Origin: an uncultured Cryomorphaceae bacterium
GTDB taxonomy: Bacteria > Bacteroidota > Bacteroidia > Flavobacteriales > Schleiferiaceae
Assembly (NCBI GenBank): GCA_937120475.1
Contig: CAKZJV010000007.1
Coordinates: 1,628,068 to 1,692,067 of the forward strand
Length of the DNA: 64,000 nt
Reading direction: 5' to 3'
This document shows, in pieces, positions 33,850 through 37,884 of this stretch; the first letter of the stretch is position 1; each line of letters opens with the position of its first letter. Both the position numbers and the translations under genes were made by a program. The notes beneath the pieces were generated by a model, which saw only the letters and a list, made by a program, of their open reading frames with translations, searched no databases and was not told where the DNA came from.

Positions 33850-34863
33850 ATGAAACACGTGTACGCGTTGATTTTTTCGGCCTTTACCTTCAGTGCTTCT
33901 GCACAAAACAGTATCGAACCTGGCTCTACCTGGACGGTTCAGGAATTGCAAACGATGGGTGGTTTTACCCAAATTGATACTACCATTGAGTGTGCTGAAT
34001 ATAGTATTACGGATTCCGTATTTAAATATAACAGGTGGTATTACCCGTTGTACAGCAGTGGGTATCATAACGGACAGGTATTTACCAATGATACGGTTGC
34101 GTTGCTCCGATCTCAAGGTCAAAAGATTTGGGCGCGTAGTTCTTCTTCCAATCGTTTCAGTGGGCCAAATTCCTTTGACACTAATGAATTTGTTCTGTAT
34201 GACTATAGCCTAATGATTGGTGATACGATTCAACTGAAATTCCAGGGAAACAAGTTTTACAACAATCGCGAAACCATTGAAACGTATCGGGTCATCAATC
34301 GTGACTCTCTTCACACCACATCCGGAAAACGTTTGCGACTAAGCCTTGTGTTTGACCGTGCCTCCCCCTCAAGTTTTATTATCTCAAATTACAGCAATTT
34401 AAGTGTCTGCGGTATTGATACGGTGATGGAATGGATTGAAAGCATTGGAACGCGAGAAGGTTTCTACTATCCCATTAATGGATCAGATTGCCAGGGCTTT
34501 TATCCTGACTACTTCATTCAAAGTCTCGTATGTTTCGAGATTGATAGTGTTCCCCAATTTATACCAACACCCGATTGTGATTGTGTTCAACAACAATCTT
34601 TAGCGGAGTTAGCTCTTGCAGAAGTTAAGGTGTTTCCCAACCCCGTCAATTCTGAAATAAGCCTGAAATTACCAGTGGAATGGACCAATAGGAATGGCAC
34701 CATTGAAATTTTAAATTTCCAGGGACAAAAGCTTATTGAACACCCGCTTGATAATAACCTTATCACGATAGCCTGGGATAAAAACTTCGTACGGGGTTTG
34801 TACATTTTGAATATTAGAATTAGCGGCACAATTACCTACAACACGAAGGTTTTAAAGGATTAA
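33850..34863 (+). CDS. Secreted protein of unknown function with T9SS type A sorting domain
   Basis: The 337-residue protein has a signal peptide (M-K-H-V-Y-A-L-I, cleavage after A-S-A-Q). Residues about 22-245 are a beta-rich region with no recognised family; there are Cys residues in T-I-E-C-A-E-Y, S-V-C-G-I-D, S-D-C-Q-G and P-D-C-D-C. The C-terminal ~75 residues (V-F-P-N-P-V-N-S-E, then I-L-N-F-Q-G-Q-K-L-I, then G-L-Y-I-L-N-I-R) are a T9SS type A domain. It is therefore exported to the surface or medium. It is divergent from era and monocistronic. Confidence 0.8.
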   Translation: MKHVYALIFSAFTFSASAQNSIEPGSTWTVQELQTMGGFTQIDTTIECAEYSITDSVFKYNRWYYPLYSSGYHNGQVFTNDTVALLRSQGQKIWARSSSSNRFSGPNSFDTNEFVLYDYSLMIGDTIQLKFQGNKFYNNRETIETYRVINRDSLHTTSGKRLRLSLVFDRASPSSFIISNYSNLSVCGIDTVMEWIESIGTREGFYYPINGSDCQGFYPDYFIQSLVCFEIDSVPQFIPTPDCDCVQQQSLAELALAEVKVFPNPVNSEISLKLPVEWTNRNGTIEILNFQGQKLIEHPLDNNLITIAWDKNFVRGLYILNIRISGTITYNTKVLKD

Positions 34864-35107
34864 GAAAAATTGGGGGTATTTTAAAACTTTGCAACATTTC
34901 AGCTTTTAAGCCTCCAATGGATTTTTCTGTTAAAAAAAGGCTTAGCTGCATTTTATCGAATCTACTCACACATACCCCACCTACCTTTGATAGGATTTAT
35001 GATTCTATTATAGGTTAATAGGGTTAAGGAAGGATTAACCTTATTATGCGGAAGGGATTGTAGTAAGAACCAGTAAATCACTGTACCTGTTGTACCCGCC
35101 AAAAGAA

Positions 35108-35137
35108 AAAGGGCCTTCAGAAATCTGAAAGCCCTTT
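35108..35137 (-). terminator. Terminator of the initiator tRNA gene
   Basis: AAAGGGC-x-TTCAG pairs with CTGAA-x-GCCCTTT around a 4-nt loop, located 9 bp beyond the tRNA 3' end on the minus strand and followed by T-rich sequence on that strand. Confidence 0.75.
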
Positions 35138-35146
35138 GTTTTCTAG

Positions 35147-35219
<73 letters not shown>

Positions 35220-35231
35220 ATATTAGGACGG

Positions 35232-35262
35232 CAAATATAAAGCGTTTCCCCAAATTGACCAA
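35232..35262 (-). promoter_or_regulatory. Bacteroidota-type promoter of the initiator tRNA
   Basis: On the minus strand TTG (35262-35260), a 20-nt spacer and TATATTTG (35239-35232) match the phylum consensus exactly; the box ends 12 bases before the tRNA 5' end. Confidence 0.75.
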
Positions 35263-35373
35263 AACTTAAGCCGTTAATCGCAAATACCCGCTCACATTTG
35301 TTAAAACTTTGGCCTTGCCCAACCAAAACCAAAAATTATTCGTTAGAAATAGTACTAACCCGAATTACTTGAA

Positions 35374-35463
35374 ATGAGAAGATTGAGAATGATTGGAGAA
35401 GTAATGCTGTACCTCCTGCTTTGCCTGATACTGGCCGGGAGCTTTTTAAACTTCAGCCTTTAG
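35374..35463 (+). CDS. Tiny single-span membrane protein, copy 1 (29 aa)
   Basis: The ATG opens a 29-residue frame: basic start M-R-R-L-R, then G-E-V-M-L-Y-L, then a hydrophobic helix ending G-S-F-L-N-F-S-L. It aligns without gaps over 24 residues with the 31-residue protein 75 bp downstream: 11 positions are identical, including G-E-x-M-x-Y-L, I-L-x-G and F-L-N. Two adjacent frames conserving the same peptide at this level argue that both are translated. Such a peptide would be an inner-membrane small protein with a short basic cytoplasmic end. It has no known family that I can name; its role might be to bind a larger membrane protein. The neighbouring sensor kinase system is convergent. Confidence 0.6.
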   Translation: MRRLRMIGEVMLYLLLCLILAGSFLNFSL

Positions 35464-35538
35464 GCTTATCCGTTAAGCCATTTACGAACCTTCAAAGCCC
35501 GCAGTCTGTTGCCTTTACCTAACCGAATAACGATTGCC

Positions 35539-35634
35539 ATGAAAAAGACTGCCGTAGTAGCCTTTGGAGAATTTATGATATACCTGGTATTTTGGTTTAT
35601 CCTGATCGGACTATTCCTGAATATCGGTTTTTAG
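35539..35634 (+). CDS. Tiny single-span membrane protein, copy 2 (31 aa)
   Basis: A 31-residue frame starting M-K-K-T-A-V-V-A-F-G-E-F-M-I-Y-L, with a hydrophobic helix that ends G-L-F-L-N-I-G-F. It is a paralogue of the frame at 35374-35463 (see there). The upstream regions also share similar blocks (CTTA..CCGTTAA before both), so the pair probably arose by tandem duplication. Its stop codon is directly abutted by the stop of the convergent response regulator gene (no spacer). No family known to me. Confidence 0.62.
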   Translation: MKKTAVVAFGEFMIYLVFWFILIGLFLNIGF

Positions 35635-36033
35635 TTACTCCTTTTTCAAATAGGTTTCAATGATAAACTGAATATTGTTGTAGATCAGGGGCTTGGTAAT
35701 AAACCCCTTTACTACATCATAGGCATTAGCCTTTTGCTGATCTTCCTTATTTAAGGAACTGCTCATCGCGAAGATCACCGAATTCTTGTGGCCGAATTGC
35801 TCTACGTAACTATCCAGGAAATCGAAGCCGCTTAAAAGTGGCATGTAAATGTCCAGCAAAATTACGTCCGGAAACGGTTCGGCTTTCTTTTCAAGCTCCT
35901 GCAGGTAATTCAGTGCATCGGTACCATCCGGGAACAGTTGAACCTCTGCCTCCGAATAGTTGCGTAGAATGATGTTCTTCAGCACAAAACTGTTTACATG
36001 ATCATTATCGACAATCATCAGGGTTAAGGCCAT
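35635..36033 (-). CDS. Single-domain response regulator
   Basis: The 132-residue protein is a CheY-like receiver only. It has the acidic pair near D9-D11 (I-V-D-N-D), the phospho-acceptor Asp61 in I-L-L-D-I-Y-M-P, Ser/Thr in A-M-S-S-S, and the conserved Lys in F-I-T-K-P-L. With no output domain it must act by protein contact, for example as a phosphate relay or sink. It is third in an operon after the histidine kinase and an AraC-type regulator (9-bp gap). Confidence 0.92.
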   Translation of the reverse strand: MALTLMIVDNDHVNSFVLKNIILRNYSEAEVQLFPDGTDALNYLQELEKKAEPFPDVILLDIYMPLLSGFDFLDSYVEQFGHKNSVIFAMSSSLNKEDQQKANAYDVVKGFITKPLIYNNIQFIIETYLKKE

Positions 36034-36042
36034 ATATCTCTT

Positions 36043-36783
36043 TTACAATTCCGCAGTTTTGGAAGGCGCAATACCATATTTCTCTTTGTAGGCCTTACCA
36101 AAATAGCTCATGCTTTTAAAGCCAAGGGCATAAGACACTTCAAAAATGGATTTATCCCCTTTTTCCAGCATGTGCTTGGCTTTGGTAAGCCTGAAATCAT
36201 TTAAATATTTTATCGGTGTCATTCCCGTAAGCTTTTTGATTTCCCGCTCCAGCTTGGAAGGAGTCATATTCATAAGGTTGGCAATTTCAGGAATGGAAAA
36301 ATTGCGAAACTTAAAGTGATTCACCAATAAAGCTTCCATGTGAGACAACATGGGGTCTTTTACACCAAATTCGTGGTGAATAGGCACTGACTTATCATAA
36401 ATATTACGCAATATTTCGCGCGAATTCAGCAAGTTATTAATTCGGGAAAGCAGAATATCGAATTTGAAGGGCTTTACAATGTAATCGTCAGCACCGAAAT
36501 TAAAACCCTCAATCTTACGTTCATCTTCGCCCAGGGCGGTAAGAAGAATAATAGGGATGTGACGAGTACTCTTGTTTTGCTTTAATTCATCCACTACTTC
36601 GTAACCATTGGCTTCCGGCATCATTATGTCACTAATGATAATATCCGGCACATCCAGTTTTGCACGGTCAATACCGTCACGGCCGTTGGTGGCCTTACTT
36701 ACCTCAAAATGGTCTTCCAGTAGAGTGGTCATCGTGGAGAGGAGCTTTTCATTATCCTCAACAATCAAAAGTTTCTTTTTCAT
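36043..36783 (-). CDS. Response regulator with AraC-type DNA-binding domain
   Basis: The 246-residue protein has a receiver (about 1-120; acidic D10, phospho-acceptor D52 in I-I-S-D-I-M-M-P, Lys in I-V-K-P-F) and a C-terminal AraC/XylS double helix-turn-helix (about 145-245; M-N-M-T-P-S-K-L-E-R-E-I-K-K-L-T-G and S-Y-A-L-G-F-K-S-M-S-Y-F-G-K-A-Y-K). This is the same output architecture as in hybrid two-component proteins of Bacteroidota. It probably activates transcription on phosphorylation by the kinase encoded 15 bp upstream. Targets unknown. Confidence 0.95.
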   Translation of the reverse strand: MKKKLLIVEDNEKLLSTMTTLLEDHFEVSKATNGRDGIDRAKLDVPDIIISDIMMPEANGYEVVDELKQNKSTRHIPIILLTALGEDERKIEGFNFGADDYIVKPFKFDILLSRINNLLNSREILRNIYDKSVPIHHEFGVKDPMLSHMEALLVNHFKFRNFSIPEIANLMNMTPSKLEREIKKLTGMTPIKYLNDFRLTKAKHMLEKGDKSIFEVSYALGFKSMSYFGKAYKEKYGIAPSKTAEL

Positions 36784-36798
36784 GACTTTTAGTTGGTT

Positions 36799-37884
36799 TT
36801 ACTTGGGTAGGCTTACAGTAAAGGTACTCCCCTCCCCCGGACTACTTACCAGGCCTACCTTTCCTTTATGTAAATCTACAAATTCCTTAACAATGGCTAG
36901 TCCTACGCCCGTTCCCTGCACGGTGCCTACGTTTTTAGCGCGGTAAAACGACTTGAAAACAGACGCTTGTTCTTCCTCGGGGATTCCTATGCCAAAATCC
37001 TGTATAATCATTTTCACATCTTCCTCATCATATTCAACGGCTACAATTACGCGGTCTTTTTTATCGGAAAACTTACAGGCATTCCCCAGCAGGTTGGTAA
37101 TAACAAAGCGCAATAACGTATAATCGGCCCTGATCTTTTCCGGTTTTTTAGCGGGTTTCAGCTGAATATCCGTATCGGGATACGCCTTTCGGATGTTTTC
37201 TTCCAGAACCTCCTTCACCAGCTCTTCAAGATCCAAAAGATCCGGTCTGAAAGTGGTTTGCCCCGTTGTGAGTTTTTTGAGCTCCAGCATATCGGCAATC
37301 ATGGAATTCAACCGGTCCACCTCTTCCTCAATGGAGCCGATAGCATTGTTCAGTACCTTTTCGCTCCTTTTAATGCGCAGCATCTCAATATTGGCCTGTA
37401 TTACCGCCAGCGGTGTTTTAAACTCATGACTGGCTATGGAATACAGGTTAGACTTAAAACGTGATATTTCCTGCTCCTTGGAGAGCGCAGCCATTAAGTC
37501 ATCGGTAAGATGTACACTCTCCGTAATATCGCGGGTGCTGGTCAGCAGGGTAAAATCCTTCTGAGGGTTTTTGCCAAAATAGGTGAAGGTGGTTTCCAGC
37601 CAGCGCAACTGACCCCGCCCGTGTTTTACCTGGTAACGTATGCGTGTTTCGGGGTGATCAAAAAAACGCTTCAGGGTAGTAAAGTCCATTTCATCGATAA
37701 AATCACTCGACAAAAAGTCGGTAAGTTTTTTACCGATAATTTCATGGGCCGGGTACCCTAATATGGATTTACTGGAAGGTGTGGCAAAGCGGATGGTGTT
37801 CTCGGAATCATGAATGCACACCAAATCGGTAGTATGCTCGGCAATTAATTCAAAAATCTTTTCCGGTGTAGCCATCCTGTTCAA
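36799..37884 (-). CDS. PAS-domain sensor histidine kinase (soluble)
   Basis: The 361-residue protein has a PAS domain (about 5-125), a dimerisation/phospho-acceptor domain with S-I-A-S-H-E-F-K-T-P-L (His about 153), and the ATP-binding domain with N box N-L-L-G-N-A-C-K-F-S, G1 D-F-G-I-G-I-P, F box and G2 G-T-G-V-G-L-A-I-V. There is no membrane segment, so the signal is cytoplasmic, read by the PAS domain. It heads a kinase / AraC-type regulator / receiver operon; signal unknown. Confidence 0.95.
   Translation of the reverse strand: MNRMATPEKIFELIAEHTTDLVCIHDSENTIRFATPSSKSILGYPAHEIIGKKLTDFLSSDFIDEMDFTTLKRFFDHPETRIRYQVKHGRGQLRWLETTFTYFGKNPQKDFTLLTSTRDITESVHLTDDLMAALSKEQEISRFKSNLYSIASHEFKTPLAVIQANIEMLRIKRSEKVLNNAIGSIEEEVDRLNSMIADMLELKKLTTGQTTFRPDLLDLEELVKEVLEENIRKAYPDTDIQLKPAKKPEKIRADYTLLRFVITNLLGNACKFSDKKDRVIVAVEYDEEDVKMIIQDFGIGIPEEEQASVFKSFYRAKNVGTVQGTGVGLAIVKEFVDLHKGKVGLVSSPGEGSTFTVSLPK

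What the first reader, a model, noticed from the sequence alone, without database searches (positions are those of the whole stretch)
35374..35634. Tandem genes for two paralogous 29- and 31-residue membrane peptides
Two very short frames 75 bp apart encode peptides that align without gaps over 24 residues: 11 identical positions, with shared G-E-x-M-x-Y-L, I-L-x-G and F-L-N. Each is one hydrophobic helix with a basic N-terminus. Their upstream regions also share blocks (CTTA..CCGTTAA). Random frames would not conserve the same peptide. They are below usual annotation limits, and the second abuts the stop codon of a response regulator gene on the other strand. This is a candidate undescribed small-protein family, perhaps regulating a membrane complex.
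Basis: partly seen in the sequence, partly recalled or inferred. Interest (0 to 1): 0.75.

Follow-up and report, generated by a model that had tools for sequence, protein, structure and literature searches.

The report
Stress-promoter-linked tiny membrane protein family
Two neighbouring, previously unnamed genes really do seem to make tiny one-helix membrane proteins; the same gene sits at the same place in related bacteria behind what looks like a stress-type on-switch, so it is probably a small stress-response membrane protein, although its partner is unknown.

Summary
Window 35374-35463 and 35539-35634 (+) encode 29- and 31-aa paralogues (12 identical alignment columns; 0 of 3000 shuffles score as high). 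They belong to a real lineage-restricted family: 9 peptides in 7 of 88 genomes of the window's family, each tail-to-tail with the same response-regulator gene, and absent from four relatives that keep that regulator. Codon changes are biased to third positions. No Pfam or PDB match, and only chance-level NCBIfam (E 0.035) and PHROGs (E 0.11) matches. Each is predicted to be one hydrophobic helix.

The same AAC-N17-CRT layout precedes one ECF sigma gene in 3 of 3 relatives. It resembles the near-palindromic 'PM2' motif of Bacteroides (PMC7366714).

Best reading: an alternative-sigma-controlled, N-in, single-span membrane regulator that docks on a membrane partner. Partner, sigma factor and phenotype are unknown.

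The parts
35319..35344 (+). Predicted alternative-sigma (ECF/PM2-like) promoter, CCAAC-N17-CGTT; AAC at 35321, CGTT at 35341
   Evidence: [A/C]AC-N17-CGTT in 7 of 7 carrier loci at -43 to -55 from the ATG; 5 of 5 one-per-lineage regions at N17 against at most 2 in 5000 dinucleotide shuffles
35374..35463 (+). Small membrane protein gene, paralogue 1 (29 aa)
   Evidence: 15 nt differences to G002, 12 at codon position 3
35539..35634 (+). Small membrane protein gene, paralogue 2 (31 aa), next to the regulator like the single-copy orthologues
35635..36033 (-). Stand-alone response-regulator receiver protein (132 aa), convergent neighbour in all 7 carriers
   Evidence: PF00072 E 1e-12
36043..36783 (-). 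Response regulator with AraC-type HTH (246 aa)
   Evidence: PF00072 and PF12833; syntenic in the 10 loci
36799..37884 (-). PAS-HisKA-HATPase histidine kinase (361 aa)
   Evidence: syntenic in the 10 loci (cut by the contig end in G020)
35146..35219 (-). tRNA-Met, divergent upstream neighbour; found in 5 of the 7 carrier loci (not G018, G020)

Best explanation
The two frames are genuine genes for a small single-span inner-membrane protein family. SHOWN: coding selection, conserved position beside the same response regulator, a conserved upstream element [A/C]AC-N17-CGTT; PREDICTED: one hydrophobic helix. INFERRED: the element is a promoter read by an alternative (ECF-type) sigma factor, so the peptide is made under a stress or starvation-like condition; the basic N-terminus stays in the cytoplasm; the helix with invariant E, Y, G, F, L and near-invariant W, S, N packs against a membrane partner and changes its activity or stability. 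The window's genus duplicated the gene and one copy has Cys in place of Trp, which suggests partner or condition specialisation. Rough step confidences: real gene 0.97; inner membrane, N-in 0.85; alternative-sigma promoter 0.75; regulator through helix docking 0.45.
For: Homologues at one locus in 7 of 88 family genomes. Synonymous bias: G000/G002 copy 1, 12 of 15 differences at position 3, 26 of 29 aa kept against a null mean of 19.3; G005/G067, 7 of 9 at position 3, 31 of 32 aa kept against 25.7; G000/G002 copy 2, 13 of 30 at position 3, 18 of 30 kept, P 0.0025. Mean Kyte-Doolittle 1.96 to 2.35 over 17 residues, 2-3 K/R before the helix, no charge after it, in 9 of 9. AlphaFold helix 2-31, mean pLDDT 87.6, for the G005 peptide. 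Promoter element at fixed spacing in 7 of 7 and no TAnnTTTG within 110 nt on that strand. The same AAC-N17-C[A/G]T layout stands before one group of ECF sigma genes and, divergently, on the other strand in 3 of 3 orthologues. Literature: PM2, a near-palindromic -30/-10 Bacteroides motif enriched at oxidative-stress genes (PMC7366714, section 8 and passages), and motifs like it proposed for ECF sigmas with TGTT near -10 (PMC12596196, passages).
Against: No partner, phenotype or expression datum. The promoter pattern as typed (CCAAC-N17-CGTTW) is hardly more frequent than its reversed control: 135 hits against 117 in 7 genomes. I looked upstream in 50 of the 73 sigma-2 matches listed in four genomes (four of the 50 are primary-sigma genes, and L143 was misread because its contig starts early): no ECF gene with the same CGTT element conserved among orthologues was found; a single G020 ECF locus, L160, has AAC-N17-CGTT 83 nt before a start codon, orthologues not compared. 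The helix-face test was not significant (P 0.21). Likeness of the motif to PM2 is by description, since the published logo was not seen, and the SigW-1 motif in PMC12596196 was itself non-significant.
Confidence: 0.5

Rival explanations
1. Membrane-modulating stress peptide of the YohP kind: it accumulates in the inner membrane under stress and alters the membrane itself rather than one partner protein.
For: Size, hydrophobicity and likely stress promoter match. YohP (27 aa) is starvation-linked; its production lowers membrane fluidity and potential and is reported to protect cells (PMC12719787, abstract and outline).
Against: Invariant E, Y, G, F, L across 9 peptides is more than bulk lipid effects would seem to need (inference).
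Confidence: 0.2
2. Auxiliary subunit specifically of the adjacent kinase/regulator module, for example a membrane tether for the kinase.
For: The regulator side of the locus is kept in 7 of 7 carriers while tRNA-Met and era are absent from the G018 and G020 stretches.
Against: Four relatives keep the whole module without the peptide, so the module can exist without it. Synteny may be inertia.
Confidence: 0.15
3. Type I toxin: a small hydrophobic toxin silenced by an antisense RNA, with tandem copies as in Ldr or Ibs loci (recalled).
For: 29-32 aa, hydrophobic, tandem in two species, convergent overlapping neighbour. The stretch 35341-35400 around the first start codon folds better than shuffles (z -2.17; 6 of 200 as good).
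Against: Single copy in 5 of 7 carrier genomes, one chromosomal site, not found in viral contigs. No Rfam match but the tRNA in 34700-36200. The predicted start site would leave only a short leader (inference), and the coding RNAs show no unusual folding (z -0.11 and -0.72).
Confidence: 0.08
4. The conserved function is the transcript, not the peptide: an RNA that runs into the 3' end of the response-regulator gene and lowers its expression by convergence; the frame is secondary.
For: Stops abut or overlap the regulator by 0-18 nt in 7 of 7 carriers.
Against: Third-position bias and aa conservation show that the peptide itself is selected.
Confidence: 0.07

Closest known systems
YohP (27-aa E. 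coli stress-linked membrane protein; PMC12719787, abstract and outline seen)
   Same: Tiny membrane protein produced in adverse conditions (for the present family: inferred from the promoter)
   Different: No sequence relation shown; other phylum; function of the present family untested
CydX, AcrZ, MgrB, KdpF (small membrane subunits and regulators; abstracts' beginnings for CydX and AcrZ in the search listing, the rest recalled)
   Same: A short hydrophobic helix that docks onto a larger membrane protein (works like, inferred)
   Different: No family model matched: 0 Pfam families for 9 members, one chance-level NCBIfam match at best E 0.035. Neighbours are a two-component system and tRNA-Met, not an oxidase, pump or transporter
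PM2 promoter motif of Bacteroides thetaiotaomicron (PMC7366714, section 8 and passages)
   Same: Two short elements about 20 nt apart, near-palindromic, distinct from TAnnTTTG
   Different: Found here by conservation, not by mapped start sites; different organisms; published logo not seen

Membership tests
Protein-coding small gene family | Homologous frames in relatives with excess synonymous change | tested here: met
Small single-span membrane proteins | One hydrophobic helix of about 17 or more residues, under 50 aa, positive N-terminus | tested here: met
   (prediction only)
Small single-span membrane proteins | Experimental membrane localisation | not testable with these tools
   needs tagging and fractionation
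ECF/PM2-type promoter | AAC-like upstream and CGT/TGTT-like -10 element at fixed spacing, no canonical box | tested here: met
   same layout at one ECF gene group; but only 135 against 117 control hits genome-wide
ECF/PM2-type promoter | Dependence on a named ECF sigma factor | tested here: inconclusive
   no ECF gene group with a matching conserved CGTT own-promoter found in 50 of 73 listed matches
Catalogued small membrane subunits (CydX, KdpF and others) | Match to a curated family model | tested here: not met
   0 Pfam; NCBIfam best E 0.035 and PHROGs best E 0.11, each in 2 of 9 members, chance level
Type I toxin | Antisense RNA and toxicity | not testable with these tools
   no Rfam support
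Type I toxin | Multi-copy or mobile distribution | tested here: not met
   one locus per carrier genome; none in viral contigs

The most novel reading that the evidence does not exclude
An undescribed family of 29-32-aa membrane proteins under an ECF/PM2-type stress promoter that arose once within one Flavobacteriales family (Owenweeksia-like bacteria), next to a kinase/response-regulator module, and acts as a stress-induced switch on that module or on a membrane enzyme, with a Trp-to-Cys copy adding a redox-sensitive variant in the window's genus.
Probability: 0.25. Interest if true: 0.65.

Novelty: new member of a known kind. Interest (0 to 1): 0.45.

Why it matters
It shows that an unnamed 29-31-aa gene pair is under selection and gives it a testable regulator and a likely culturable host: the complete 4,000,057-bp genome G005 has the length published for the Owenweeksia hongkongensis type strain (PMC3570807, passages). 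It also supplies a candidate AAC-N17-CGTT promoter class in Flavobacteriales, where few alternative-sigma promoters are mapped (recalled).

Tried and rejected

Regulon by pattern: CCAAC-N17-CGTTW gave 135 hits against 117 control hits in 7 genomes. I examined 20 of those 135, chosen by eye as AT-rich; the 30 loci that itself returned were not gone through. A few stand before genes (L095/L096, L098, L107). The L095/L096 site is shared by G005 and G067 of one genus, as is, from the matched strings, the L098 site; none was seen to recur in a second genus. No regulon claimed.

Rejected: the AAC..CGTT hit upstream of the primary sigma gene (L116-L118). The window's own genome (L115) lacks it, and the region holds another conserved element.

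Distant homologues: 42 weaker matches in the order and class samples had E >= 7.3e-4 per genome. I read 16 of the 42: fragments or parts of larger frames, such as an IGSFLN stretch in a frame of about 246 aa that I take from memory to be ComB-like. Two of the best (L180, L182) are the same stretch, with a similar hydrophobic run, in a 193-aa frame of two genomes; I take them as chance, untested. The other 26 were judged by E-value and length only.

One conserved helix face: not significant. Automatic orientation was wrong for some loci (L007, L011 at least); L007's place was redone as L216, and absence rests on the orientation-free profile searches. The ECF scan failed through a too strict motif and that took wrong starts; one search replaced them.

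Literature: searches returned no paper. I did not see the family in the listings (10 of 33 shown); most subscription papers are not held and supplements were not searched.

Full report
OBSERVATION. The window is G000:C7:1628068-1692067. Both frames exist as described: a 29-aa frame at 35374-35463 and a 31-aa frame at 35539-35634, plus strand, 75 nt apart, the second touching the stop codon of a minus-strand response-regulator gene (gap 0 nt). They share 12 identical columns including Met. Their ungapped score, 54, exceeds all of 3000 composition shuffles (maximum 43) and all of 3000 segment-keeping shuffles (maximum 48).

FAMILY. The 132-aa regulator was used to find the same place in relatives. 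Frames for the same peptide lie at its 3' end, convergent, in G002, G018, G023 and G005. A profile search of 88 whole genomes of the window's taxonomic family found nine peptides in 7 genomes: two each in G000 and G002, one each in G018, G023, G005, G067 and G020, all at E <= 3.3e-7; the 20 other genomes that passed the loose limit of E 1 did so with matches of E >= 0.0275 only, the best of them a 14-residue fragment. The wider profile gave the same 7 genomes at E <= 1.4e-13 among 395 of the order (12 others at E 0.0015 to 0.05), and in 395 of the class only the window's genome (28 others at E 7e-4 to 0.05); these draws are samples, not all species, and I read 16 of the 42 weaker matches (see Tried and rejected). 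All 7 lie next to the same regulator. Three carriers are public MAG contigs by equal contig length (L061 and L063 titled Owenweeksia sp., L062 Bacteroidia bacterium), and G005 has the exact published length of Owenweeksia hongkongensis, 4,000,057 bp (PMC3570807, passages); these identities are my inference. No relative in viral contigs.

PRESENCE AND ABSENCE. Eleven genomes are known to hold a close regulator orthologue (ten with E <= 4.1e-53, own included, and G067); the regulator was not sought in 50 of the 88 family genomes. Seven of the eleven carry the peptide; G016, G029, G009 and G011 do not, although all four keep the kinase-regulator-regulator order. In a tree of four concatenated neighbouring proteins (1173 columns, G020 with three of the four) the four non-carriers are separated from the seven carriers with support 100, which fits one gain or one loss. 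tRNA-Met was found in the loci of five carriers including the window and not in the stretches of G018 and G020, which also show no era-like frame.

CODING. Differences by codon position 1/2/3: G000/G002 copy 1, [2,1,12]; G005/G067, [2,0,7]; G005/G023, [13,3,20]; G067/G023, [12,3,21]; copy 2 of G000/G002 is weaker, [11,6,13], P 0.0025 against random substitution; the other pairs gave P <= 0.0001.

ANATOMY. All nine have 2-3 Lys/Arg before an invariant Glu (one, G023, also an Asp there), then 17 mostly hydrophobic residues (mean Kyte-Doolittle 1.96-2.35) and no charged residue after it. E12, Y16, G25, F27 and L28 (alignment numbering) are invariant besides Met; W20 is Cys in copy 1 of G000 and G002 only; Ser26 is Leu only in copy 2 of the window; Asn29 is Gln only in G020. 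AlphaFold gives one helix, residues 2-31, mean pLDDT 87.6. The positive-inside rule (recalled) predicts N-in. A helical moment of conservation was not significant (P 0.21), so a single contact face is not shown.

PROMOTER. Upstream of the first gene each of the 7 loci has [A/C]AC, exactly 17 nt, CGTT, 43-55 nt before the ATG, six with AAC and G023 with CAC. In five one-per-lineage regions 5 of 5 have it at N17; 5000 dinucleotide shuffles gave at most 2 at N17 and at most 3 at any spacer from 10 to 24. The pattern was found by eye in these same loci before it was tested, so the shuffles are a check, not an independent test. The spacer itself is poorly conserved, so shared ancestry alone does not explain the two elements. 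No TAnnTTTG (canonical Bacteroidota box, PMC7366714 passage) lies within 110 nt on the same strand in 7 of 7. The second gene of the pair has no copy of the element at N17 and may be co-transcribed. Among the sigma loci looked at, one orthologous ECF group (L149, L156, L159) has GCAACC-N16-C[A/G]TC before the sigma gene and again on the other strand, towards a divergent frame, 3 of 3 each: the same AAC-N17-CRT layout. In B. thetaiotaomicron a second, near-palindromic motif centred at -10 and -30 (PM2) goes with oxidative stress and stationary phase (PMC7366714, section 8 and passages), and PM2-like elements with TGTT near -10 have been proposed for ECF sigmas SigW-1 and SigH-1, the SigW-1 motif itself being non-significant in that paper (PMC12596196, passages). 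I therefore infer an alternative-sigma promoter. Against it: 135 hits against 117 control hits genome-wide in 7 genomes, and no particular sigma is identified (50 of 73 listed matches looked at). The stretch from CGTT over the first start codon also folds as RNA better than shuffles (z -2.17), so a regulatory RNA or DNA hairpin there is not excluded.

MECHANISM. Most likely a stress-induced inner-membrane regulator that docks by its conserved helix on a partner; see rivals for a lipid-acting peptide, a tether of the neighbouring kinase, a type I toxin and an RNA effect. The kinase's above-threshold Pfam matches are PAS, HisKA and HATPase. The 3' ends of peptide gene and regulator gene touch or overlap by 0-18 nt in all 7 carriers, so convergent transcription could link their expression whatever the peptide does.

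NOVELTY. No Pfam or PDB relative, and only chance-level NCBIfam (E 0.035) and PHROGs (E 0.11) matches, each in 2 of 9 members. The kind (tiny stress-linked membrane proteins such as YohP, PMC12719787 abstract) is known; the family is not in the libraries searched, and large small-protein catalogues (for example PMC11364881, listing only) could not be searched here.

Noticed in passing
L149, L156, L159 (G000:C7:2098900-2101200, G005:C1:2404100-2406400, G020:C62:3200-5500): An ECF sigma gene carries GCAACC-N16-C[A/G]TC upstream on its own strand and again on the other strand in 3 of 3 orthologues, a candidate self-regulated divergent ECF promoter pair.
   Followed up: partly
L115-L118, within about 110 nt upstream of the 287-aa primary sigma gene: A conserved block CTGACAATTA followed by AAGGAA(C/T)A(A/G)TTTTTG stands before the primary sigma gene in four genomes; unexplained.
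   Followed up: no
window 33850-34863 +: A 337-aa frame, with what I recall as a type IX secretion sorting-type C-terminus, lies between era and tRNA-Met in the window; no similar frame of 100 aa or more appears in the 10 other loci compared.
   Followed up: no
window 35464-35478: A short perfect hairpin (GCTTA/TAAGC) directly follows the stop of the first gene, without a T run; by eye it is not in the G002 sequence printed.
   Followed up: no
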